A DNA stretch of 64,000 nucleotides, from the NCBI GenBank assembly GCA_015061545.1, contig SUWJ01000007.1, positions 28,614-92,613 of the forward strand. The letters are read 5' to 3'. The notes under the pieces are model-generated. The model ran no database searches. It worked only from the letters and a program-made list of their open reading frames with translations, and was not told the DNA's origin. This document shows, one piece after another, positions 2,286 through 14,218 of this stretch. How positions within the stretch are numbered: position 1 is the stretch's first letter; every line of letters starts with the position of its first letter. Source of the stretch: Lentisphaerota bacterium. GTDB taxonomy: Bacteria; Verrucomicrobiota; Lentisphaeria; Victivallales; Victivallaceae. A program made the translations under genes and the position numbers.

Positions 2286-3881
2286 TTATTTGTCTTCCTT
2301 GCGGGAATCTTCTTCCCGGCCCGCGCGCTGACTCTTGATCTTGGCGCGGATGATTGCGGCGGCTCTGGGATCGGCGTGTTCCAGATAATCTTTCACCACC
2401 TGGTTGCGGATCTCGTTATACGGCGCCAAACCGCGGCGGCCCCGTTCTTTATCCGAAGAAATACCGCTCTGATAATCGGCGTAAATCTTCTTTGCCATCA
2501 GTTCGTAAGTGGCGGCCTCTTCTTCTTTATCGTTGACCGAAGCAGTCAGCGCATTCTGAATGAAGGCATTGATAATATCGGTGATCTGTTTGAAGGTAGC
2601 AGTTGCCACGATCTCTTTAAGTTCCCGATCCAGAAATGTTTTAAAGGGAGGATATTTGACTGTGTTATCCTCTTTCTTCAGCAATTCATAAACCTCTTTG
2701 GTTTCATCAAAACGGCCGAAAATGAACAGCAGCACCGAGGCATTCTTCATAAAATTGATCTTACCGGTACGGAAACTTTCCAGATTGTCCGCTTCTTCCC
2801 GCGCCCAGTCATAAGTGCGGATCGCCGCCATTACCATATCCAGATTCGGCGCCAGAATCAAATAGCGATACCCCTCCTGCTGCGTCCACAACACCCGGCC
2901 CGCCCGCACCATTTCCTGCAGACAGGTGGCAATGATACGCGAGCATTGCATATCGTGCCCGGTAACGCGGATCCCTTCCGACGCCCAGTAGATCGCCTGA
3001 GCTTCGGCAAGGCGCCAGTCCATAGAACCGTACTCCTTGTTGAGTGTATTGATATATTCAGCCCGCAAACGGTATTTGTCATAAAGCCAGATCGTGCGCA
3101 GCGCTGCATCAAGATTTTCCGCCAGCTTGAGATCGTTCAGCGCAGTTACAAATTTCTGCGGCAGCATCGACTCCTGACGGAATATTTCGTTCAGCGCCTT
3201 GTAATCGGCGATACCGCAGCGGTTGGCAGCTTTCCACATGGGATCGTCTTTCGGATAAAGCTTCATAAAAGCGGCTTCATCCATCGGCATTGTACTCCAG
3301 AGTTCCCACTTCGGTTCGGCAGTTATAACTGCTTCCATTTCCGTGGCCAGACGCGCCTTGTAGTAGTAACTTGCATTGTCCAGCACGTTACCCATTTTCT
3401 GCTGAAAGATCACCGCCAGCTCCCAGTACAGACGCGGTGCATCAGGGTTGTAGACCAACGCCTCATCGCGGATGAGTTTGATCCCTTCCCACACCCAGTA
3501 CCAGCGATCCTGCCACAACGAACAGGTTACAGATATATTGTACGCCATGTTCCACGCCAGATAAGCCGTTGCGCTGGCAAAACGCGGCTGCAATTTAGTT
3601 ATCCAGCTGGCCAGCTGAACCATTTCAAAGTAGTTCTTATCTTCCTGCAAACTGGCAGCACGCAGCCAGAGCAAGTCGGCGATCAATCCGCGGAAACTGC
3701 CCAGCGCCATGGTGGTAAACGTTACCACCGGCGGAGCGTTGTTGATCTGCCCGGTAAAGAAAAGATCATGCTGACGGATCATCGAATCCAGCCGCCGCTG
3801 GGTCATACTGATCCCGAACACCAGCACCAATGTCACGATCAGCGCCAGAGAATATTTGAAAAATTTATGAATGTTTATCAT
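2286..3881 (-). CDS. conserved membrane-anchored TPR-like protein of unknown function
   Basis: 531 aa ORF, N-terminal TM helix and helical repeat-like body; 4-nt ATGA overlap with upstream ABC permease. Confidence 0.7.
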   Translation of the reverse strand: MINIHKFFKYSLALIVTLVLVFGISMTQRRLDSMIRQHDLFFTGQINNAPPVVTFTTMALGSFRGLIADLLWLRAASLQEDKNYFEMVQLASWITKLQPRFASATAYLAWNMAYNISVTCSLWQDRWYWVWEGIKLIRDEALVYNPDAPRLYWELAVIFQQKMGNVLDNASYYYKARLATEMEAVITAEPKWELWSTMPMDEAAFMKLYPKDDPMWKAANRCGIADYKALNEIFRQESMLPQKFVTALNDLKLAENLDAALRTIWLYDKYRLRAEYINTLNKEYGSMDWRLAEAQAIYWASEGIRVTGHDMQCSRIIATCLQEMVRAGRVLWTQQEGYRYLILAPNLDMVMAAIRTYDWAREEADNLESFRTGKINFMKNASVLLFIFGRFDETKEVYELLKKEDNTVKYPPFKTFLDRELKEIVATATFKQITDIINAFIQNALTASVNDKEEEAATYELMAKKIYADYQSGISSDKERGRRGLAPYNEIRNQVVKDYLEHADPRAAAIIRAKIKSQRAGREEDSRKEDK

Positions 3882-5311
3882 TTGCGAATCACCAATCCCA
3901 GTTCACGCCGCCAGTACAGGAAGACGCCCAGCACGATAAACGGCAGCGCCTGCAGCAGAAAATGCTCGCAGAACAACCCGCCGATATAGCTGAATTCCAC
4001 CAGTTCGCCGCTGGCAATTTTGTACGAGATCTCAAACTCCTGCAGCGGAGCAACGATCTTCATGATCACCTTGCCGATCCAGTAACCTGCATATTTGCTC
4101 GGATCTGCCAGCTGACTTGTGGTCATGATCAACGGAGCCACACTGCCGAGGAACATATAGCTTAAAACCGCAAAGATCGCCGTCGGCATGGAAAATGCCG
4201 CTGCCACCGCGCAAGTGATCCCCGCATAAACCATTACCATCAGCAATATCACCAGCAAACCGCGGATAAAGTTGCCCGCAAAGCTGCTTACGCTGATCAA
4301 CAGTTTAGGCCCGTCAACGGTCTGAAAGTAAACCTTATCCTGAGCGTTATCCAGATTTATATAGCGCAAATTCACATTGCCGTCGGGGTCGATAACCTGC
4401 GGCGGCATAACTTTTTCGTGAAATTCCCCGGCGTAGTTCTGTTCGGGCATCTGCGAAAGTGCCATCCAGTTGCGGGTGTAATCTTCCTGAGCTACAGTCT
4501 GGTTATTCATCGCCTCCTGTTTGCGCTCAACAATATAACCTGCCCACAACCCGGTGGTGTAACGCTGCGCTTCCGAATCCACCTTGCCCACATAGCAGCG
4601 GTAACGCAGATAGATCGGCTTGCTCTTATCCTGAGGCAGATCTTTGAAAGTCCACTCGCCGTATTTCTGGAAAAGAACTTCCGAACGCTGCCGCAGCATC
4701 TCCTGACTCAAGCCCTTGCGGAGTTCAGCTTCCATTTCCCCCGCCTGCGCCGTCACCTGCCGATTACCTGCTTTACGCATCTCTTCCAGCTGTTGCGCCA
4801 GCGCTTCGCGGGTAAGTTTATCCATATCCGGCGGCTCCGGGTAGTAGACACGCCTGCCCACCAGTACCTCGTTGCGGATGCGCTCTTTTTCTTCTTCAGG
4901 AATATCATCCTGAGCAAAGCGCCACATCACGCCGCCGAAAATCGTTATCCCAGCCAAGCCCAGCAGCACCGCGTGCAGCAGCACTACGCTGGCATATTTG
5001 GCACAAAAAATCTTGATGCGCGACACGGGTTTGGATACCACCATATGCAGCTGATAACTCTCCACATCCTGAGTCATCACCAAACTGGAGATCCACACCG
5101 TCGAAAGCGCCAGAATAAACCCTACCGTCCCCAGACTGTACATAAGCGCGATCTGTATATAAGAACGCGCCCCTTCGCCGGAACCGGAAACAGTCATCGG
5201 CAGCATCACCGCACACAACACCAGCAATCCCAGCAAAAGCTGAAAGATGTGTGAACGCATCGCGCTGCGCAATGTAAGTTTTACGATTGCAGAAAATGCT
5301 CTCATAATCAA
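3878..5311 (-). CDS. ABC-2 type transporter permease with large extracytoplasmic insert
   Basis: N-terminal TM segments, long soluble insert, C-terminal TM cluster; adjacent to ABC ATPase. Confidence 0.8.
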   Translation of the reverse strand: MIMRAFSAIVKLTLRSAMRSHIFQLLLGLLVLCAVMLPMTVSGSGEGARSYIQIALMYSLGTVGFILALSTVWISSLVMTQDVESYQLHMVVSKPVSRIKIFCAKYASVVLLHAVLLGLAGITIFGGVMWRFAQDDIPEEEKERIRNEVLVGRRVYYPEPPDMDKLTREALAQQLEEMRKAGNRQVTAQAGEMEAELRKGLSQEMLRQRSEVLFQKYGEWTFKDLPQDKSKPIYLRYRCYVGKVDSEAQRYTTGLWAGYIVERKQEAMNNQTVAQEDYTRNWMALSQMPEQNYAGEFHEKVMPPQVIDPDGNVNLRYINLDNAQDKVYFQTVDGPKLLISVSSFAGNFIRGLLVILLMVMVYAGITCAVAAAFSMPTAIFAVLSYMFLGSVAPLIMTTSQLADPSKYAGYWIGKVIMKIVAPLQEFEISYKIASGELVEFSYIGGLFCEHFLLQALPFIVLGVFLYWRRELGLVIRK

Positions 5312-5333: not shown

Positions 5334-6497
5334 TTAGCGGTTTTTCAATATATCGTTAAGTTTTTCATCGGCAGCCTTGAGTGCTTCAGCATCAGCCTGC
5401 GCCTGCAGATCTGCCTTGTCAGGACTCTTCTTTTCAGCGTTTGCCGTCAACTCGGCGACTTTGGCTTCCTGAGCCTTGCGCAAAGCTTCGGCCTGACGGG
5501 CGGCGGCTTCTTCGGCACTTTCGCGTTTATGTTCGGCTTTCGGTTCGGCGATCAGATTTTCCAGCACGGCGCTTTCTTCATCCTTACCGGCAGAAAGGTA
5601 TTCAGCAATACCGCCCCCCAAAGCGCCCGAAGTTTCCACACTTTCGTTCTTGGCTTCGGCAATAACATCCAAGAAGAATTCTTCCAGCGTGCGGCGCGGA
5701 TGATCCATTACAAACTCTTCGCCCTTGAGATTTTCGCGCAGGATGTTCAGCACCTTTTCAGTTACCTCAGGCGCCAGCGACGGCGTGACAATGCGCGTGG
5801 AATCGCTGACCGTGAGCAGCTCGTTCAAACTGCCCTGCGCACGGATCTTGCCGCCGTAGAGAATTACCACGCGGTCGCAAATATCTTCCACATCGCTGAG
5901 CAAATGGCTGGTGATAAGCACCGTTTTGCCCCGCTTTTTCAGCTCCATGATCAAATCTTTGACTTCGCGGCAGCCCAGCGGGTCAAGCCCGGAAGTCGGC
6001 TCGTCAAAAATCAGCAGCGACGGGTCGTTGATCATCGCCTGCGCCAACCCGATGCGGCGCGCCATACCTTTGGAAAACTCTCCGACCCGACGGTGACGGG
6101 CATGGGACAACCCCACCATTTCCAACAGCTGATCAATACGGTTGCGCCGTTCAGCCGCCGAAAGATTGAACAGCGACCCGAAGAAATCCAGCGTTTCTTC
6201 CGCAGTCAAATATTTGTAAAGATAACTTTCTTCCGGCAGATAACCGATTTCGCGCTTGGTTTCCACCGCCCGCGGCGCCTTGCCCAGCACCGAAAGCTGG
6301 CCGGAGGTCGGATAAAGCAATCCCAGAATCATCTTGACCGTAGTCGATTTACCTGAACCGTTCGGTCCCAGCAACCCCACAACTTCACCTTCCTTGACCG
6401 TAAAATCGATCTGGTTCACCGCCCGTGCTTTGGGGCGGTTCCAGAAATCGCGGAACACTTTGGTCAAGCCTACCGCGCGTATCACATCATCTGCCAT
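5334..6497 (-). CDS. ABC transporter ATP-binding protein with Ala/Glu/Lys-rich C-terminal extension
   Basis: Walker A GPNGSGKST, Walker B LLIFDEPTSGLDP, signature FSKGMARRIGLAQ; start set at MADDVIRAVG. Confidence 0.9.
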   Translation of the reverse strand: MADDVIRAVGLTKVFRDFWNRPKARAVNQIDFTVKEGEVVGLLGPNGSGKSTTVKMILGLLYPTSGQLSVLGKAPRAVETKREIGYLPEESYLYKYLTAEETLDFFGSLFNLSAAERRNRIDQLLEMVGLSHARHRRVGEFSKGMARRIGLAQAMINDPSLLIFDEPTSGLDPLGCREVKDLIMELKKRGKTVLITSHLLSDVEDICDRVVILYGGKIRAQGSLNELLTVSDSTRIVTPSLAPEVTEKVLNILRENLKGEEFVMDHPRRTLEEFFLDVIAEAKNESVETSGALGGGIAEYLSAGKDEESAVLENLIAEPKAEHKRESAEEAAARQAEALRKAQEAKVAELTANAEKKSPDKADLQAQADAEALKAADEKLNDILKNR

Positions 6498-6588: not shown

Positions 6589-8535
6589 TTATTTTTTACG
6601 TTTGTTTTCTTCCAGCGTCAATTCTTCACCGGTACGCACCAATCTGGCGCTGTTGAAGATCACCACCAGCGTGCTGAGCGTGTACAATACCGCCGCCCCG
6701 ACGGGAGTCATCTTATCAAACACCAGCAGCACCATGCCGCCGAATACAAACAATATACCGATACACAAATTCTGATAGATCACCATCCGCGATTTCTGCG
6801 AAAGGTCTATAAGCATGGGAATACGACGCAAATCGTTAGTCATCAATGCAATCGAAGCGCTGTTGATCGCAACGTCGCTCCCGATCGCCCCCATGGCGAT
6901 CCCCAGATCCCCTTCCGCCAGCGCCGGAGCATCGTTGACCCCGTCGCCCACCACCGCAGTCGGATAGCTCTTCTTGGCATTTTCCACATATTCGACCTTG
7001 GCTTCGGGCAGACACTCGCTGCGGAATTCATCAATATCCAGCACGCCGGCAACCTTTTCGGCAACCGATTCACGGTCCCCGGTCACCATTGCCACCTGGC
7101 GGATACCCAGATTGCGCAGATCTTTCAGCGCCTGCGCCGCTTCCTTACGGATTTTATCGCTCAATCCGATCCAGCCGATGATCTCGCCGTTGCGGGCAAC
7201 AAAGACCACGCTGAGTCCTTCGGTATCTTCGATCTTGAAATCTTCGGGCAGATAAATTTCCTGCTGCTCCAGCCACGCCGAGCGGCCTACTGCCACCGAC
7301 ATACCGTCTATGGAAGCTGTAACCCCCTTACCGTGGATTTCCTTGAAGTCGCTTACCTGACTCAAGCTCATCTGCGCCTCTTCCGCCAGCTTGACCAGCG
7401 CCACCGCAGTCGGGTGGTTGCTGTTGGCTTCGGCAGAAGCTGCCAATTTGAGCATTTCCGCAGGGGAAACTTCACCGAACGGCACCAGTTTGACCACCGA
7501 AAGCAGTCCGTCGGTCAGTGTACCTGTTTTGTCAAAGACAAACGATCTGATCCGCGCCGCCAGCTCCAGATGGCTCACATCCTTGATAAAGATCCCCAGA
7601 CGTGCCGCTGCCGCCACCGCTGCCACGATTGCCGTCGGCGATGCCAGCATAATAGCTCCGGGACAGGCGATCACCAGCAGCGTGATGACCTTGGATATAT
7701 CTCCGGTAAACCACCAGGTGATACCCGCCAGCATCAGGATCGTCGGCGTATAATAGCCTGCATAGCGGTCGATGATCCGCACAATGGGTGTGCGGGTGTT
7801 TTCCGCCTGCATGATCATACTCTTGACTTTACCCAGTGTGGTATCTTCGCCCAGACGGGTAACTTTAAGTTCAACCAAACCGGTCAGGTTCTGGGTACCG
7901 GCGTAAACATCGTCGCCCACAACTTTATCCACGGGCATTGATTCCCCGGTGATCGACGCCTGGTTGACAATGGATTCGCCGGCAAGCACCTGACCGTCCA
8001 CCGGGAAGTTTTCCCCGGGGCGCACGCGGATGATATCGCCCAGCGCCAGACTCATAACATCAGCTTCCACTTCGGAACCGTTTTTCACCAGGTGTACCTG
8101 AGTCGGCGTAAGTTTGACCAGTTCTTCAATGGAGCGCTGCGCCCCTGAAGCGGTACGGCTTTCGATGATAATTGTTATCAACAGAAAGAATGCAATGACC
8201 CCGGCGTTCTGAAAATGACCGCCTGCCGTCTGGTAATTGCCGCCTGCCAGCGCCGCTAAAATCGCCAGCGCCACCAGTTCATTCATATAAACCTTGCCCG
8301 AAAGCAAGTCTTTGACCGCAGTATAAATGATCGGCATTGCCAGCACAAACGCCCCCAGCAGAGCGCTGAAGGTTGCCGCAAAAACCTGATTCGGCAAAAA
8401 ATAGCTGAGGATAAACGAGTCCGCAGTCAGCATCCCGCCAATGACCGCAAAAGCGACCAGAGTCAGACTGCGTTTGCGGTTATCCCCTGAATTTACAGCC
8501 ACTGCAGCTGCTTCATTATTTATATTCTGACTCAT
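6589..8535 (-). CDS. P-type ATPase, heavy-metal (P1B)-like, with CPG instead of CPC/CPH motif
   Basis: DKTGTLT, TGES, HP locus (SNHPTA), GDGVNDAPAL, TM motif ACPGAIMLASPTA; no N-terminal GMxCxxC domain; start set at MSQNINNE. Confidence 0.9.
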   Translation of the reverse strand: MSQNINNEAAAVAVNSGDNRKRSLTLVAFAVIGGMLTADSFILSYFLPNQVFAATFSALLGAFVLAMPIIYTAVKDLLSGKVYMNELVALAILAALAGGNYQTAGGHFQNAGVIAFFLLITIIIESRTASGAQRSIEELVKLTPTQVHLVKNGSEVEADVMSLALGDIIRVRPGENFPVDGQVLAGESIVNQASITGESMPVDKVVGDDVYAGTQNLTGLVELKVTRLGEDTTLGKVKSMIMQAENTRTPIVRIIDRYAGYYTPTILMLAGITWWFTGDISKVITLLVIACPGAIMLASPTAIVAAVAAAARLGIFIKDVSHLELAARIRSFVFDKTGTLTDGLLSVVKLVPFGEVSPAEMLKLAASAEANSNHPTAVALVKLAEEAQMSLSQVSDFKEIHGKGVTASIDGMSVAVGRSAWLEQQEIYLPEDFKIEDTEGLSVVFVARNGEIIGWIGLSDKIRKEAAQALKDLRNLGIRQVAMVTGDRESVAEKVAGVLDIDEFRSECLPEAKVEYVENAKKSYPTAVVGDGVNDAPALAEGDLGIAMGAIGSDVAINSASIALMTNDLRRIPMLIDLSQKSRMVIYQNLCIGILFVFGGMVLLVFDKMTPVGAAVLYTLSTLVVIFNSARLVRTGEELTLEENKRKK

Positions 8536-8536
8536 C

Positions 8537-9727
8537 TTATTTGCCTCCTGCCTGTGTCTGATTCGCTTCAGGAGCAGCACTCTGCGCCGAAGCGTTGCCC
8601 CCGTTGTCAGCGGACTGGGGCTTGGGGATTTCGGGACTGAGCTTGAGCCAGACTTTGCCGCCGTTGGCAGCGCCCAGCACAAACTTCTGATCAATATTGC
8701 TGAGAACTTCGCCCAGCACCGCGTTGTAACGCGACATCAGCGCAGTGCGCGGATTGGCGGTGTATTCTTTCAGAAAACTTTCAAAATAAAGACTTTCGGC
8801 TTTCACATCCGCCACCGTCATCGTGCGGTAATTTTCGGCAGCTGCCACGATTCTGGCACTTTCTTCCTTGGCCCGCGCCAAAGTGCTGTCGCGGTATTCA
8901 GCGGCTTTTTCGATCATCGTGCCCTGTTCGGAACGCACCGCAGTAAGGGCATCGAAGAATCCCTGGGTAACTGCGGGAGTCATCACCTTGCCGTTGATCC
9001 GCACTTCTTCGATCACGATCCCGATATCCAGATCGGCAACCATCTTGCGGTAGCAGCGTTCCACGGCATCGCGGTACTCAGTCTGGCGGGAGTAAAGGAT
9101 ATCGTCCACCGTCCAGGCGGCGGTGGTGATTATGACAGCGCTTTCCAACATTCTGCCCAGCATGACCCGCGGTCCGCGGCGTCCCAGTTCCTGACCGTTT
9201 TCCACAATCACTTCATCCGGCCCGGCAGGATCGACCGGCACCCGCAGCGTCTGATAAAAACGCGCCGGATCGCTCACCTGAAACCGTGCGCTCCAGCTGG
9301 CGTGGATAATATTGGCATCCGCCGTCAGCAAATAGCGATCCCGCGACGGCTGCATACCGGGCAGCTCCCCGTTCGGACCGGGCGGAGGCAGCTGCTCCAG
9401 CGGAATCCCGGCATTAAAAGTAACCTGCAGCGTCTGCGGACTGGTGGGTACCACCACTTTGCTGGTCACCGGATCGGGCAGGAACCAATGCCAATCGCTG
9501 GTGTAAGTCTTTTCGTATTTACCGAAACGCAGCACGATCACCGCTTCCTGCGGGGAAACTGCAAAGTAACCGCCCAGCGTAAAGAAGTAAACCAGCATTG
9601 CAAAAATCAGCCCCACCAGCGCCAGAAAGACCCAGTGACCGGCCTTCATAAACGCCTGGACACCGCTGCTGTACTGCGCGTACAACTCGCCATCCTGCGT
9701 CGTATTTTTATTGTATTTGTTATCCAT
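8537..9727 (-). CDS. SPFH/band-7 domain protein, HflK-like
   Basis: single N-terminal TM followed by SPFH domain (YFAVSPQEAVIVLRFGKYEKTYTSDWHWFLP); 1-nt gap to the ATPase gene. Confidence 0.85.
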   Translation of the reverse strand: MDNKYNKNTTQDGELYAQYSSGVQAFMKAGHWVFLALVGLIFAMLVYFFTLGGYFAVSPQEAVIVLRFGKYEKTYTSDWHWFLPDPVTSKVVVPTSPQTLQVTFNAGIPLEQLPPPGPNGELPGMQPSRDRYLLTADANIIHASWSARFQVSDPARFYQTLRVPVDPAGPDEVIVENGQELGRRGPRVMLGRMLESAVIITTAAWTVDDILYSRQTEYRDAVERCYRKMVADLDIGIVIEEVRINGKVMTPAVTQGFFDALTAVRSEQGTMIEKAAEYRDSTLARAKEESARIVAAAENYRTMTVADVKAESLYFESFLKEYTANPRTALMSRYNAVLGEVLSNIDQKFVLGAANGGKVWLKLSPEIPKPQSADNGGNASAQSAAPEANQTQAGGK

Positions 9728-9742
9728 CTTCAACAGCCTTTG

Positions 9743-10681
9743 TTATTTGGCACCCGGGGTATTATCGGCAGGAATATTCAACACGTCAGCATTGCTCTTG
9801 AGCAGAGTAAAGGGGTCGGTGTTGGTATCCAGCACCACCGTGGTCTTGCCCTTCATGATGGTACGCAGACTGTCGAGCTTGCGCAAGAACGCCGCCAGTT
9901 CGGGATTCTTGGCAAAGACCCGCAGATACTGGGCTGCTTCCACATCGCCCTTGGCGCTGATCTCTTTGGCCTGAGCTTCCGCCATGGCAATGATATTGGC
10001 GCGTTCCTTATCGGCAGCGATACGGATCTCTTCGGCGCGGAGTTTCCCCTTGCTCAGATAATCCTGCGCGGCGCGCATACGATCCTGATTCATGCGTTCA
10101 AAGACCTTGCTGCTGACCGCTTCGGGCACATTCAGCGAAGTGATGCCGACTGCGCAAATATCCAACCCGTAGGGATTGGCTTTTTCCGCAATATCTTTTT
10201 TGATCTGATCGGCGATCTGATTGAGCCGCATTTTTTTGGCATCGGTGGTCAGGATCTCATCGAACTTGTACTTGCCGAAAGCGGCGCTTTTGGCTCCGCG
10301 CATCCAGATATCCAGTTCGCTTTCCGCCTTCTGGAAAGTGGTCATACGCTTGGCAAAAACCAGCGGGTCCTGAATCTTGTACGCCACATAGATCCCCACG
10401 AGAATATTCTGTTTATCCGCCGTGGCAGTTTCTTCGATCTGCCCTTCATGACCGCCGAAGCAGTGCATACGCTTATCATATTTGGTGATCTTTTCAAAAG
10501 GATACGGCCAGCGGAAATGCAGCCCGGGTTCAGGATGTTCATTGAGCATCTGCCCCATCCGTTCGATCACCGCCACTTCGGTCATATTCACCTGATAAGT
10601 AAATACTGCCACCAGCAGCACTGCAAATACAAACACCCCCAGCAGGAGCGTCGGCCAATGTTTGAAAATCTTGCTTGACAT
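9743..10681 (-). CDS. SPFH/band-7 domain protein, HflC-like
   Basis: N-terminal TM, TEVAVIERMGQMLNEHPEPGLHFRWPYPFEKITKYDKR, and coiled region KERANIIAMAEAQAKEISAKGDVEAAQY. Confidence 0.88.
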   Translation of the reverse strand: MSSKIFKHWPTLLLGVFVFAVLLVAVFTYQVNMTEVAVIERMGQMLNEHPEPGLHFRWPYPFEKITKYDKRMHCFGGHEGQIEETATADKQNILVGIYVAYKIQDPLVFAKRMTTFQKAESELDIWMRGAKSAAFGKYKFDEILTTDAKKMRLNQIADQIKKDIAEKANPYGLDICAVGITSLNVPEAVSSKVFERMNQDRMRAAQDYLSKGKLRAEEIRIAADKERANIIAMAEAQAKEISAKGDVEAAQYLRVFAKNPELAAFLRKLDSLRTIMKGKTTVVLDTNTDPFTLLKSNADVLNIPADNTPGAK

Positions 10682-10725
10682 AATTTATGCTTACGCCTTT
10701 CTTTTATATATATTTTTTCTTAATC

Positions 10726-12717
10726 TTATTCACCCAAATTGGCATCAAAGAGATTCAAGCGCTCTTTTTCTTCCAGATTCAACTCGTAAACATCGCCCTG
10801 CAGCGAGGAGCTGAGGATATATTTGCGGACATCTTTGCAATCTTTTTCCAGAAATTCCAGATAATTGCGCAACATGAAAAGCCGCGGCATGGTGTTGTAT
10901 GCCTGAAGCTGCTTTTCAAAACGTTCGCTGACCGCCTTGGCAACGGTGGAAGTCTGATTGCTCTGTGCTTCGGCGCGGGCTATGATCGACAAAGCATCTG
11001 CCTTGGCCTGCGGCAGCACCTCGGCGCGGTATGTTTCCGCCGCCAGCACCATTTTTTCGCATTCTTCCATAGCGCCCAGCACCTTCTGGAATTCGATCCC
11101 CACCTGAGTCGGAGGATGGATCCCCACCAGATTGGCGGCAATGATGTCCACGCCCAATTTTTGCGCATCGCATTGCTCTTGAATACGCTTGCGGATTATT
11201 TCTTCCGCCTGACGGCGGCCATTGGTTATAACATAGTAGAAAGGCGCGCTGGCAAGATATTCGGTCACGACCATATGCCCGATATTGCTGATCATTTTTT
11301 TGGTGTCAACGCTGCCATATACGTAATTGAGAATACCTTCGGGGCGGATCTGATACTGAATGGGCATGGAAAGCCCCACAAAGTAGAAATCGCCCAGCAC
11401 ATCATCGGACTTGCGACCGCTGGAGTGAGAGACATCGTTGGCAACGATAAAGTTGTTGTTGCCTTCGCCATGTTCAGCTGTCCAGAGAACCACCGAATGG
11501 TCTTCTTCTTTTTCTTTTTTGGGCGGCGGCGCGTGACCGTGACCGTCATCGACGTATTCTTCTTCTTCCTCTTCATGTTCATGTTCATCGTGACCGATTA
11601 TCACCGTATGGATCTGGTCGCAGGAATATTTATCCAGCGTACCGAACGGCCACGGCAAGGTAAAGTAGATACCCGGTTTAAGCGGTTCTTCCACATTGGC
11701 GCCCAGATTGGAACGCAGCCCGATCTCGTTGGGATCGACCTCATGGATCGACGTAGAACCCCACAACAGCAGCGCCCACAGCAAAAGCAGCGGGAACAGC
11801 GCCCGCTCCACAAAGCTGTACATCCAGGTCGAAGAAACCTTGAAGCCGAACTGATAGTCCAGCATATTGGCAAAGTTACGCATCACGCCGCCGGGTTCGG
11901 TAAAGAGCGCCAGCAGACGGCTTTCAAATACGGGGCGGGATTCCTCCAGCGTGCGGGGCCGGTAAAACTCCACCACAAAACTCAGCACCAGTTCCGCCGC
12001 CAGCACCAGATAGATCCCCAGCAGGATTCTGGCGATCATGGGATCATACTCTTTATGGCCCGACTTGAAGCAAAGCCCGGCCACCACCGCCGCCGCCGAA
12101 GCAATGGCGCCGGCAATCAGCCACGCCCCGAAGGGACGCAGCCAGCGGAAGATATCCTCCCGGCTCTGACCGTTGTAGAACGCTCCGGCAAAGAGCGAAA
12201 TGACCCCGATCACCGCCGCCAGAAACACCATGTACATCGGATTGTTCTGGCTGCTGTGGAGTACGGCTTCGCGCAGTTCAGCGCTGCGGTCGCTCCAATG
12301 GTTGAAGAACGCCATTGCCAGCACTGCGATCAGTACCGCTGCCAGTACACTCAGTACATAAGGCACATAACGAGTATAATTATCGAAGGTGCGCTGCTGG
12401 GTAAAGCGGGCATCTTCGTCCACCGCCAGCATATTGTTGTCGTGCCGTTTTGCCAGCAGCATTTTTTCTTCGTTTTCGATTGCCGCGCCCTTGGCGAACA
12501 TACCGTAAAGGGTGGCAGCCAAACCGAACAACGCTGCAATGGTATAGGGTATGACCACCACAGCAAATGTATCGGAATTGGCGAAGGAGGATTTGATCAC
12601 GCCCAACACCAGCAGGAGTATGGCAAACACCGCGCTGAGGATTGTCCCCACCACAGATAATTTGGTCATAACCCCGGCATTGTCAATTGCGGCGCGATAG
12701 TTTGAAGTATTGCTCAT
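10726..12717 (-). CDS. large polytopic SPFH/band-7 domain protein with His/Glu-rich insert
   Basis: multiple N-terminal TM helices then SPFH domain (VDPNEIGLRSNLGANVEEPLKPGIYFTLPWPFGTLDKY); ATG at 12717 preceded by SD GGGAG. Confidence 0.85.
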   Translation of the reverse strand: MSNTSNYRAAIDNAGVMTKLSVVGTILSAVFAILLLVLGVIKSSFANSDTFAVVVIPYTIAALFGLAATLYGMFAKGAAIENEEKMLLAKRHDNNMLAVDEDARFTQQRTFDNYTRYVPYVLSVLAAVLIAVLAMAFFNHWSDRSAELREAVLHSSQNNPMYMVFLAAVIGVISLFAGAFYNGQSREDIFRWLRPFGAWLIAGAIASAAAVVAGLCFKSGHKEYDPMIARILLGIYLVLAAELVLSFVVEFYRPRTLEESRPVFESRLLALFTEPGGVMRNFANMLDYQFGFKVSSTWMYSFVERALFPLLLLWALLLWGSTSIHEVDPNEIGLRSNLGANVEEPLKPGIYFTLPWPFGTLDKYSCDQIHTVIIGHDEHEHEEEEEEYVDDGHGHAPPPKKEKEEDHSVVLWTAEHGEGNNNFIVANDVSHSSGRKSDDVLGDFYFVGLSMPIQYQIRPEGILNYVYGSVDTKKMISNIGHMVVTEYLASAPFYYVITNGRRQAEEIIRKRIQEQCDAQKLGVDIIAANLVGIHPPTQVGIEFQKVLGAMEECEKMVLAAETYRAEVLPQAKADALSIIARAEAQSNQTSTVAKAVSERFEKQLQAYNTMPRLFMLRNYLEFLEKDCKDVRKYILSSSLQGDVYELNLEEKERLNLFDANLGE

Positions 12718-12838: not shown

Positions 12839-13198
12839 TTATCCGACAAAAAACCTATGGGGCGGTCCCCGCGGATTGCCGCTGCAGCACAATCTGTTTT
12901 CCTGCACTTGCTCCGAACGCGGCAAAAGATGCTCCGTAACTCCTGAGCAAGCGCCGAGTTCCACACTTTCTGGCACCAGGTAATCCAGCGACCCGACGCA
13001 GACCGCAGTCATCTGACTGCCGCGGTAGACGATCGTTCCGCCCGGAGCCTCCCACTGAAAACTCTCCGCAGAAGAGCTTTGCCAGCAAAATTCCTCGGTT
13101 ATTTCCACCGTATGACGCGACATTGGCGAAGCCGCCAACACAAAGAGCATCACACTCAGCAGCAATAAGTTAGCATAAATTTTACGACACACAAACAT
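12839..13198 (-). CDS. small hypothetical protein with N-terminal signal/TM segment
   Basis: 119 aa ORF with hydrophobic N-terminus; located downstream of a putative promoter. Confidence 0.45.
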   Translation of the reverse strand: MFVCRKIYANLLLLSVMLFVLAASPMSRHTVEITEEFCWQSSSAESFQWEAPGGTIVYRGSQMTAVCVGSLDYLVPESVELGACSGVTEHLLPRSEQVQENRLCCSGNPRGPPHRFFVG

Positions 13199-13360: not shown

Positions 13361-14218
13361 TCAATGGTTCCAGCGGGTTCTGAATTCCCGCGGACTCATG
13401 GCACGTTTTTTACGGAAGATACGCGAAAAATAAAATTGATCTTTGAATCCCGCCGCAGCAGCGCACTCCCGGATGGAAGCGTTGGGATGCTGCTTCCAAT
13501 ACTCTTCGGCAGCGCAAAGCCGCCGTTCGATCAAAAGCTCCTTGAAACAGGTATGGTATTTATTGCGGAGAAACTGCGCCACAGCCGATATGCTTTTACC
13601 GAGCAACGCGGCCAGATCCGCCAGATATATATCGTTGGCATAATTTTCTTCTATATACTTATCTATAGCGCATTTCAGCGGATCGGGGCGGAATATTGCC
13701 AGCTCCCGTGCCGAGATGTAGTCGATCAACATTTGCAATGTACCGATTATGGCTTCGAGTTTTTCATCCGACAGCATCGGCAGCGCGGCAAAAGATTTTT
13801 CCAGCAGCTTGCGTTCTTCGCTGCTGCGGCAATAAGCCAGCGCGCAGGCAGGGATCGTATCGCCGCTGCGGAACTGCCCGACCATCAGAAATCCCGCCAG
13901 ACGGCCACCGATGACCACGGGGGCGACTATTTCCCGCAACCCGGCGTGGCAGGTGTAAGAGATCGGTGCATGGTGCTCAATAACTTTTTCCCGCATAATG
14001 CGGTCAACATCCATACATTTATCCAACAGCCCCAGTTTCTGCTGAATAAAATTGCAAAACCCGGTGTTGGGCATCTCTTTGCCGCGGCGGATCGGCAGAC
14101 CGAAGCGGGAAAAGAAAGTGACCCGCAGATCCAACATTCCGGCAAAATTATCCAGCAGCTTCTGAACATCGTCGTTCAGAAACAACTCCTGAATATTATG
14201 ATTTTCCATACTCTCCAT
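13361..14218 (-). CDS. AraC family transcriptional regulator with PocR-like sensory domain
   Basis: N-terminal PocR-like region (LLDNFAGMLDLRVTFFSRFG...CHAGLREIVAPVVIGGRLAGFLMVGQFRS) and C-terminal AraC HTH (IRECAAAAGFKDQFYFSRIFRKKRAMSPREFR). Confidence 0.88.
   Translation of the reverse strand: MESMENHNIQELFLNDDVQKLLDNFAGMLDLRVTFFSRFGLPIRRGKEMPNTGFCNFIQQKLGLLDKCMDVDRIMREKVIEHHAPISYTCHAGLREIVAPVVIGGRLAGFLMVGQFRSGDTIPACALAYCRSSEERKLLEKSFAALPMLSDEKLEAIIGTLQMLIDYISARELAIFRPDPLKCAIDKYIEENYANDIYLADLAALLGKSISAVAQFLRNKYHTCFKELLIERRLCAAEEYWKQHPNASIRECAAAAGFKDQFYFSRIFRKKRAMSPREFRTRWNH

What the first reader, a model, noticed from the sequence alone, without database searches (positions are those of the whole stretch)
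6589..12717. Candidate undescribed membrane system: three SPFH proteins cassetted with an atypical P-type ATPase
Seen: four collinear minus-strand genes with 1, about 15 and 44 nt gaps encode a polytopic SPFH protein (about 663 aa), an HflC-like protein, an HflK-like protein and a P1B-like ATPase. Known: HflK/HflC form the canonical SPFH pair that modulates FtsH, and flotillins scaffold membrane domains; neither is normally encoded as a trio with an ion pump. No ftsH is present in the window. Inference: the SPFH trio may build a membrane cage or microdomain that houses or regulates the ATPase.
Basis: partly seen in the sequence, partly recalled or inferred. Interest (0 to 1): 0.75.

Follow-up and report, generated by a model that had tools for sequence, protein, structure and literature searches.

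The report
SPFH trio with metal-type P-type pump
Three membrane-organising (SPFH) proteins and a P-type ATPase sit side by side here in a gene block that is conserved across at least two bacterial phyla and matches the zinc/copper pump (hmtA) operon of Pseudomonas aeruginosa, so it is a real, widespread metal-transport module rather than a unique system, although what the SPFH proteins do for the pump is untested and this lineage has an altered metal site.

Summary
The order polytopic SPFH, HflC-like, HflK-like, P-type ATPase is strongly conserved. In the window's phylum, 73 of 81 loci carry all four (69 in this order, 4 with the ATPase first). It also holds in 80 of 80 named Proteobacterial loci that were fetched with the SPFH gene alone, and on conjugative plasmids. 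By gene order and phylogeny it corresponds to the P. aeruginosa PA2439-PA2435 (hmtA) cluster. HmtA is reported as a zinc/copper importer, and that cluster is induced by zinc starvation. Most likely the trio forms a periplasmic cage or platform around or next to a metal pump; that step is inference. New here: (1) the unit extends to seven genes with an ABC transporter and a TPR protein; (2) in the window's genus the pump's metal site is changed (CPC to CPG, His to Tyr) although the gene is the operon's most conserved (dN/dS 0.08), suggesting a changed cargo; (3) the SPFH protein's six-helix part weakly resembles zinc CDF transporters, by fold only.

The parts
10726..12717 (-). polytopic SPFH protein ('SPFHtm', 663 aa): six-helix N-terminal membrane domain, seventh helix, SPFH domain, 70-residue helix as in HflK
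   Evidence: Band_7 E 2.8e-7; 7 hydrophobic segments; AlphaFold2 pLDDT 85; best fold hit HflK 9cz2 E 2e-12; homologues in about 96 of 100 class genomes
11497..11592 (-). His/Glu-rich insert (HDEHEHEEEEEEYVDDGHGH...) in the SPFH domain of SPFHtm
   Evidence: sequence; similar in L054 but not general in the family
9743..10681 (-). HflC-like SPFH protein (312 aa)
   Evidence: Band_7 E 7.5e-23; TIGR01932 125.5 bits, below its cut-off 134.4
8537..9727 (-). HflK-like SPFH protein (396 aa)
   Evidence: Band_7 E 3.7e-13; TIGR01933 91.2 bits, below its cut-off 159.4
6589..8535 (-). P1B-like P-type ATPase (648 aa), no N-terminal metal-binding domain
   Evidence: TIGR01525 531 bits; catalytic TGES, D335KTGT, HP, GDGVND conserved; dN/dS 0.081 against the same-genus copy
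7657..7665 (-). ATPase membrane metal motif C291-P292-G293 (CPC in most relatives)
6682..6684 (-). ATPase last-helix residue Tyr618 (His in most relatives)
5334..6497 (-). ABC transporter ATPase with C-terminal extension, next gene downstream
   Evidence: ABC_tran E 1.1e-34; adjacent to the P-type ATPase gene in 44 of 81 loci
3878..5305 (-). ABC-2-like permease
   Evidence: ABC2_membrane_4 E 0.0017, below cut-off; conserved in synteny
2286..3881 (-). membrane-anchored TPR-solenoid protein (531 aa), overlaps the permease gene by 4 nt
   Evidence: AlphaFold2 pLDDT 85, one N-terminal helix plus helical repeats; TPR fold hits; TPR families in some relatives; present in 96 of 100 class genomes

Best explanation
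The locus is the local form of a widespread cassette: three ancient SPFH paralogues plus a P1B-type metal ATPase of the HmtA type. Shown: conserved order, tight spacing, intact catalytic residues, shared phylogeny with the Proteobacterial cassettes. From literature on P. aeruginosa: the homologous operon is induced by zinc starvation, its first promoter binds Zur, and its ATPase raises cell zinc and copper when overproduced. Inferred: the three SPFH proteins co-assemble, as HflK/HflC do, into a ring or cage on the periplasmic face of the inner membrane, with the six-helix part of the largest one in the membrane, and this cage surrounds or docks the ATPase, shielding or feeding its metal-entry side or protecting the pump from FtsH. 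In the window's genus the pump stays active but its cargo is probably changed, because two likely metal ligands are replaced. The downstream ABC/TPR genes are a separable companion module of this class.
For: Four genes in order in 69 of 81 loci from the window's phylum, plus 4 with the ATPase first; 3 of the 8 exceptions are contig ends. Same order in 80 of 80 named genomes fetched with the SPFH gene alone and on plasmids of Burkholderia, Klebsiella, Paraburkholderia and Rhizobium. Median gaps between the four genes -4 to 17 nt in both sets. Tree: polytopic SPFH of both phyla form one clade (support 0.93), cassette HflK one clade, canonical HflK and canonical HflC separate clades. ATPase catalytic residues virtually invariant in 158 sequences, CPC in 62 of 74 and 84 of 84, last-helix His in 65 of 74 and 83 of 84. 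ZnuA/ABC-3 metal importer genes upstream in three distant lineages (L098, L134, L120). Zur-box-like palindrome near the first gene in 70 of 86 Proteobacterial loci against 54 of 1720 control windows. P. aeruginosa: PA2437-PA2439 and hmtA up under zinc depletion (PMC4542158, PMC11761036), Zur binds the PA2439 promoter (PMC8531726), HmtA raises Zn and Cu (PMC10393844). SPFH fold hits HflK/C cages.
Against: No test of physical contact. PA2435 itself was not compared by sequence (its genome was not reached); orthology rests on published gene order and on other Pseudomonas loci. No Zur box was found in the window's phylum. The window's own pump lacks CPC and the last-helix His. Some relatives keep the trio without the ATPase (L070, L089, L114) or SPFHtm alone (L079, L082). 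The direction of HmtA transport is described as needing confirmation (PMC10393844). Deleting the three SPFH genes in P. aeruginosa PA14 had only small effects (PMC13086221), but zinc limitation was not among the conditions in the passages I read.
Confidence: 0.5

Rival explanations
1. The SPFH trio is this lineage's HflKC and serves FtsH or general membrane quality control; the ATPase is a regulon neighbour that shares a promoter but not a complex.
For: The genome has an ftsH elsewhere and no other HflKC-like pair was seen: its other three Band_7 proteins are an adjacent flotillin/prohibitin-like pair and one more distant protein (judged by eye). Cassette HflC groups with canonical HflC. Trio without the ATPase exists in a few relatives.
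Against: Order kept over two phyla with the ATPase almost always present. Pseudomonas has a separate canonical HflKC, and the cassette HflK and SPFHtm are not in that clade (PMC13086221). NCBIfam hflK and hflC cut-offs are not reached.
Confidence: 0.2
2. In this lineage the pump no longer moves Zn/Cu; it moves another ion, and the seven-gene unit (SPFH, P-type ATPase, ABC transporter, TPR) is an envelope or lipid-handling machine.
For: CPG and Tyr replace CPC and His in the window and its same-genus relative while dN/dS of the ATPase is 0.081, the lowest of the operon. Other lineages also vary (VPA; CP[VIM] with Gln; [IL]PC with His-Glu). ABC/TPR genes are adjacent in much of the class.
Against: Only two independent joint changes, so ligand coupling cannot be shown statistically. 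The ABC/TPR genes lie elsewhere in many genomes of the class and did not appear next to the Proteobacterial cassettes.
Confidence: 0.2
3. Gene order is conserved only by inertia and horizontal transfer of a useful metal pump; the SPFH proteins are not needed for its function.
For: Patchy in Proteobacteria (9 of 299 genomes) and on plasmids, as expected of a mobile block.
Against: Transfer as a block of all four, with order kept in all 80 named loci, argues that the four work together; the order also survives in the class where the unit is near-universal.
Confidence: 0.1

Closest known systems
P. aeruginosa hmtA cluster PA2439-PA2435 (HmtA P1B ATPase with SPFH proteins PaFlo5-7)
   Same: Same gene order by published annotation (PA2439 first, HflK family; PA2438 HflC; PA2437; PA2435 HmtA); the same order seen directly in 80 other Pseudomonas and Enterobacterales loci
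   Different: Window ATPase has CPG/Tyr rather than CPC/His, no Zur box, extra ABC/TPR genes downstream; about 37% ATPase identity to Pseudomonas cassettes
HflK-HflC-FtsH complex (E. coli)
   Same: SPFH domain plus long helix; HflK 9cz2/7vhq are best fold hits
   Different: Third, polytopic SPFH protein; linked to a P-type ATPase rather than hflX/hfq; separate clades for canonical HflK and HflC
P1B ATPases CopA, ZntA (7r0g, 4umv)
   Same: Long matches over most of the protein (E 5e-95 and 4e-83), catalytic motifs
   Different: No N-terminal metal-binding domain; CPG motif; last helix without His
CDF zinc transporters (YiiP, ZnT) and the Aquibium CDF-HflK fusion
   Same: Fold search places nine CDF structures directly after the SPFH and vault hits; the Aquibium trio has a true Cation_efflux-HflK fusion (PF01545 E 4.5e-25)
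   Different: No CDF sequence signal in the window protein, no HxxxD sites, profile comparison not significant

Membership tests
HmtA-type SPFH/P1B cassette | SPFHtm, HflC-like, HflK-like, P-type ATPase in this order on one strand | tested here: met
HmtA-type SPFH/P1B cassette | SPFH members group with Proteobacterial cassette members, apart from canonical HflK | tested here: met
   one clade each for SPFHtm and cassette HflK; HflC cassette members group with canonical HflC
HmtA-type SPFH/P1B cassette | CPC in the membrane and His in the last helix of the ATPase (family majority) | tested here: not met
   window and same-genus copy have CPG and Tyr; so the Zn/Cu activity of HmtA is not claimed for the window
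HmtA-type SPFH/P1B cassette | Zur box upstream | tested here: not met
   70 of 86 Proteobacterial loci have one at 2 or fewer mismatches, window has none
HmtA-type SPFH/P1B cassette | Zn/Cu uptake by the ATPase | not testable with these tools
   literature only, for P. aeruginosa (PMC10393844)
HmtA-type SPFH/P1B cassette | Sequence orthology to PA2435 itself | not tested
   no P. aeruginosa genome reached; other Pseudomonas cassettes used instead
P1B ATPase | TIGR01525 above cut-off and P-type catalytic motifs | tested here: met
Canonical HflKC | NCBIfam equivalog cut-offs for hflK and hflC | tested here: not met
   91-92 of 159.4 and 125.5 of 134.4 bits
Canonical HflKC | FtsH-contact residues of E. 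coli HflK (R141, E142, R185) | tested here: inconclusive
   these positions vary even among canonical HflK (residues from PMC13220708)
Cation diffusion facilitator (for the SPFHtm N-terminus) | PF01545 match and HxxxD sites in helices 2 and 5 | tested here: not met
   fold resemblance only

The most novel reading that the evidence does not exclude
SPFH cages have a second, non-protease client class: P1B metal pumps. The trio forms a periplasmic chamber around the pump, with a CDF-derived six-helix membrane domain as its metal-facing part; in the window's class the chamber also carries an ABC/TPR transporter, and the window's genus has retuned the pump to a new cargo.
Probability: 0.2. Interest if true: 0.85.

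Novelty: new variant of a known kind. Interest (0 to 1): 0.55.

Why it matters
What SPFH cages do other than modulate FtsH is an open question, and P. aeruginosa PaFlo5-7 have no clear role; the paper that characterised them does not mention the neighbouring pump gene (hmtA 0 occurrences; ATPase 0). Showing that the same trio is locked to a metal pump across phyla turns both problems (what the trio does, and how an 'importing' P-type ATPase can work) into one testable hypothesis. The natural series of metal-site variants (CPC, CPG, CP[VIM], VPA, [IL]PC) is a ready panel for asking how pump cargo changes.

Tried and rejected
Zur box in the window's phylum: no enrichment. Shared upstream motif in the family: only A/T-rich and promoter-like words. 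His-rich insert as a general metal trap: present in the window and L054 but not conserved. Statistical coupling of the two metal-site changes: too few independent events. FtsH-contact residues as a discriminator: not conserved in canonical HflK either. CDF homology of the six-helix domain by sequence: not supported; hhalign probability 4%, and an unrelated control (part of the P-type ATPase) scored higher. CDF-HflK fusion elsewhere: only the one Aquibium plasmid among plasmids, none in 399 genomes at the threshold used (the genome search had no positive control). Kinase in place of the ATPase in L070 and DEAD helicase next to lone SPFHtm in L079 were not pursued.
Full report
Observation. The four minus-strand genes are present as described, with gaps of 44, 15 and 1 nt: SPFHtm 10726-12717, HflC-like 9743-10681, HflK-like 8537-9727, P-type ATPase 6589-8535. 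All three SPFH proteins match Band_7, and the ATPase matches the heavy-metal P-type ATPase model TIGR01525 well above its cut-off. The genome's only FtsH peptidase domain is on another contig. Three more same-strand genes follow: an ABC ATPase, an ABC-2-like permease and a 531-aa protein. The last is predicted as a TPR-like solenoid on one membrane helix.

Conservation in the window's phylum. The polytopic SPFH protein was found in 148 of 291 genomes of the phylum, and by my count from the table in about 96 of 100 genomes of the same class. I took 80 loci of up to 20 kb around it plus the window and scored every ORF with profiles of the seven proteins. The SPFH trio is in order in 76 of 81, the four genes in 69, and 4 more have the ATPase directly upstream. 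Of the 8 exceptions three are contig ends, three have the trio without the ATPase (L070, L089, L114) and two have SPFHtm alone (L079, L082). The ABC ATPase follows the P-type ATPase in 44 loci and the full ABC/TPR set in 31. The TPR protein is in 96 of 100 class genomes but often away from the cassette, so it is a companion module, not part of the core.

Conservation outside the phylum. A protein search of plasmid records led to the same four genes in the same order in Burkholderia ubonensis, Klebsiella aerogenes, Paraburkholderia sprentiae and Rhizobium tumorigenes, two of these on plasmids typed as conjugative. A scan of one genome per species with the SPFH protein of these records returned 80 loci (Pseudomonas, Enterobacter, Kluyvera, Erwinia, Rahnella and others). 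All 80 carry the four genes in order although the ATPase was not used to find them. They are dominated by one genus and are not 80 independent observations. In a sample of the phylum Pseudomonadota only 9 of 299 genomes have it, so it is patchy there. Median intergenic distances are -4 to 17 nt in both phyla.

Phylogeny. In a tree of 107 SPFH sequences the polytopic proteins of both phyla form one clade (0.93), the cassette HflK-like proteins another, canonical HflK a third and canonical HflC a fourth; the cassette HflC-like proteins group with canonical HflC. The trio therefore consists of old paralogues shared by the two phyla, not a local duplication.

Identity of the pump and link to known biology. 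The closest characterised counterpart is the P. aeruginosa hmtA cluster: PA2439 first, HflK family; PA2438 HflC; PA2437; PA2435 HmtA. It is up 5- to 14-fold in a znuA mutant (PMC4542158) and its proteins rise on zinc depletion (PMC11761036). Its first promoter is bound by Zur in vitro (PMC8531726), although that study saw no repression of hmtA mRNA on zinc addition. HmtA overproduction raised zinc and copper, with the importing direction described as needing confirmation (PMC10393844). I could not fetch PA2435 itself, so the correspondence rests on published order plus direct evidence from other Pseudomonas. A 2026 study of the three SPFH proteins as PaFlo5-7 does not mention hmtA, and none of the top results of a search for HmtA with SPFH, flotillin or band 7 held HmtA.

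Independent metal evidence. ZnuA/ABC-3 metal importer genes lie just upstream of the cassette in a member of the window's phylum (L098, reading frames overlapping) and in Erwinia (L134), and ABC-3 permease genes lie a few kilobases upstream in Paraburkholderia (L120). These are 3 of about 166 loci. A Zur-box-like palindrome (consensus from general knowledge) lies near the start of the first gene in 70 of 86 Proteobacterial loci against 54 of 1720 control windows; there was no enrichment in the window's phylum. The Aquibium trio starts with a true CDF-HflK fusion (PF01545 E 4.5e-25) and is followed by a P1B ATPase and a copper chaperone gene.

The window's pump. Catalytic residues (TGES, D335KTGT, HP, GDGVND) are virtually invariant in 158 cassette ATPases. 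CPC is present in 62 of 74 and 84 of 84 sequences of the two sets, and the last-helix His in 65 of 74 and 83 of 84; each set includes one or two ordinary P1B ATPases. The window and its same-genus relative have C291-P-G293 and Tyr618 (residue numbers printed there are zero-based). Between these two species the ATPase is 90.6% identical with dN/dS 0.081, against 0.17-0.28 for the other six genes, so the altered site is not decay. Second cassettes in some genomes of the class have CP[VIM] with Gln, and other lineages VPA with His or [IL]PC with His-Glu. A changed cargo is the simplest reading; statistical coupling cannot be shown.

The polytopic SPFH protein. AlphaFold2 (83 sequences, pLDDT 85) gives six membrane helices, a seventh, an SPFH domain and a long helix as in HflK. 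Fold search gives HflK/C, prohibitin, stomatin and erlin cages first, then, after vault and single SPFH domains, nine CDF zinc/manganese transporters in a row at E 0.03-0.16. Sequence tests for CDF are negative or not significant, so this is a lead only.

Mechanism. Shown: a conserved, tightly spaced unit with an intact P-type ATPase and three distinct SPFH proteins. From literature on the P. aeruginosa counterpart: zinc-starvation induction and metal accumulation. Inferred: the SPFH proteins form a cage on the periplasmic side that hosts the pump. Main rivals: the trio serves FtsH; or the pump in this lineage has another cargo and the seven genes do envelope work.

Verdict. Real and widespread, partly known in P. 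aeruginosa, not previously described (in the papers I could search) as a cross-phylum SPFH-pump system; the window is a variant with a changed metal site and an ABC/TPR companion.

Noticed in passing
L121:5361-6908 (Aquibium oceanicum plasmid): A true CDF (PF01545) fused to HflK, followed by HflC and a second HflK, then a P1B ATPase and a PCu(A)C copper chaperone gene: an independent SPFH-metal transport link.
   Followed up: partly
L184:15553-16740 and about 63 other Proteobacterial (mainly Pseudomonas) loci: A cyclopropane-fatty-acid synthase-like (CMAS, PF02353) gene about 277 nt downstream of the cassette on the same strand, with a phospholipase-D-like gene next to it on the other strand.
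   Followed up: partly
L081, L084, L111, L112, L116: Second cassettes, in genomes that also hold a first one, whose pumps have CP[VIM] and Gln instead of CPC and His: a paralogous cassette clade, probably with another cargo.
   Followed up: partly
L070:8392-11160: The trio is followed by a 922-aa Ser/Thr protein kinase where the ATPase normally sits.
   Followed up: no
L079, L082: A genus in which SPFHtm stands alone, without HflC, HflK or the ATPase nearby; in L079 the next gene is a DEAD helicase.
   Followed up: no
L087-L105 (several), upstream of SPFHtm: An extra ABC-2-like permease gene overlaps or abuts the start of the cassette in part of the phylum.
   Followed up: partly
window 13361-14218, minus strand: PocR-domain AraC-family regulator upstream of the cassette; an orphan 119-aa ORF (12839-13198) lies between.
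   Followed up: no
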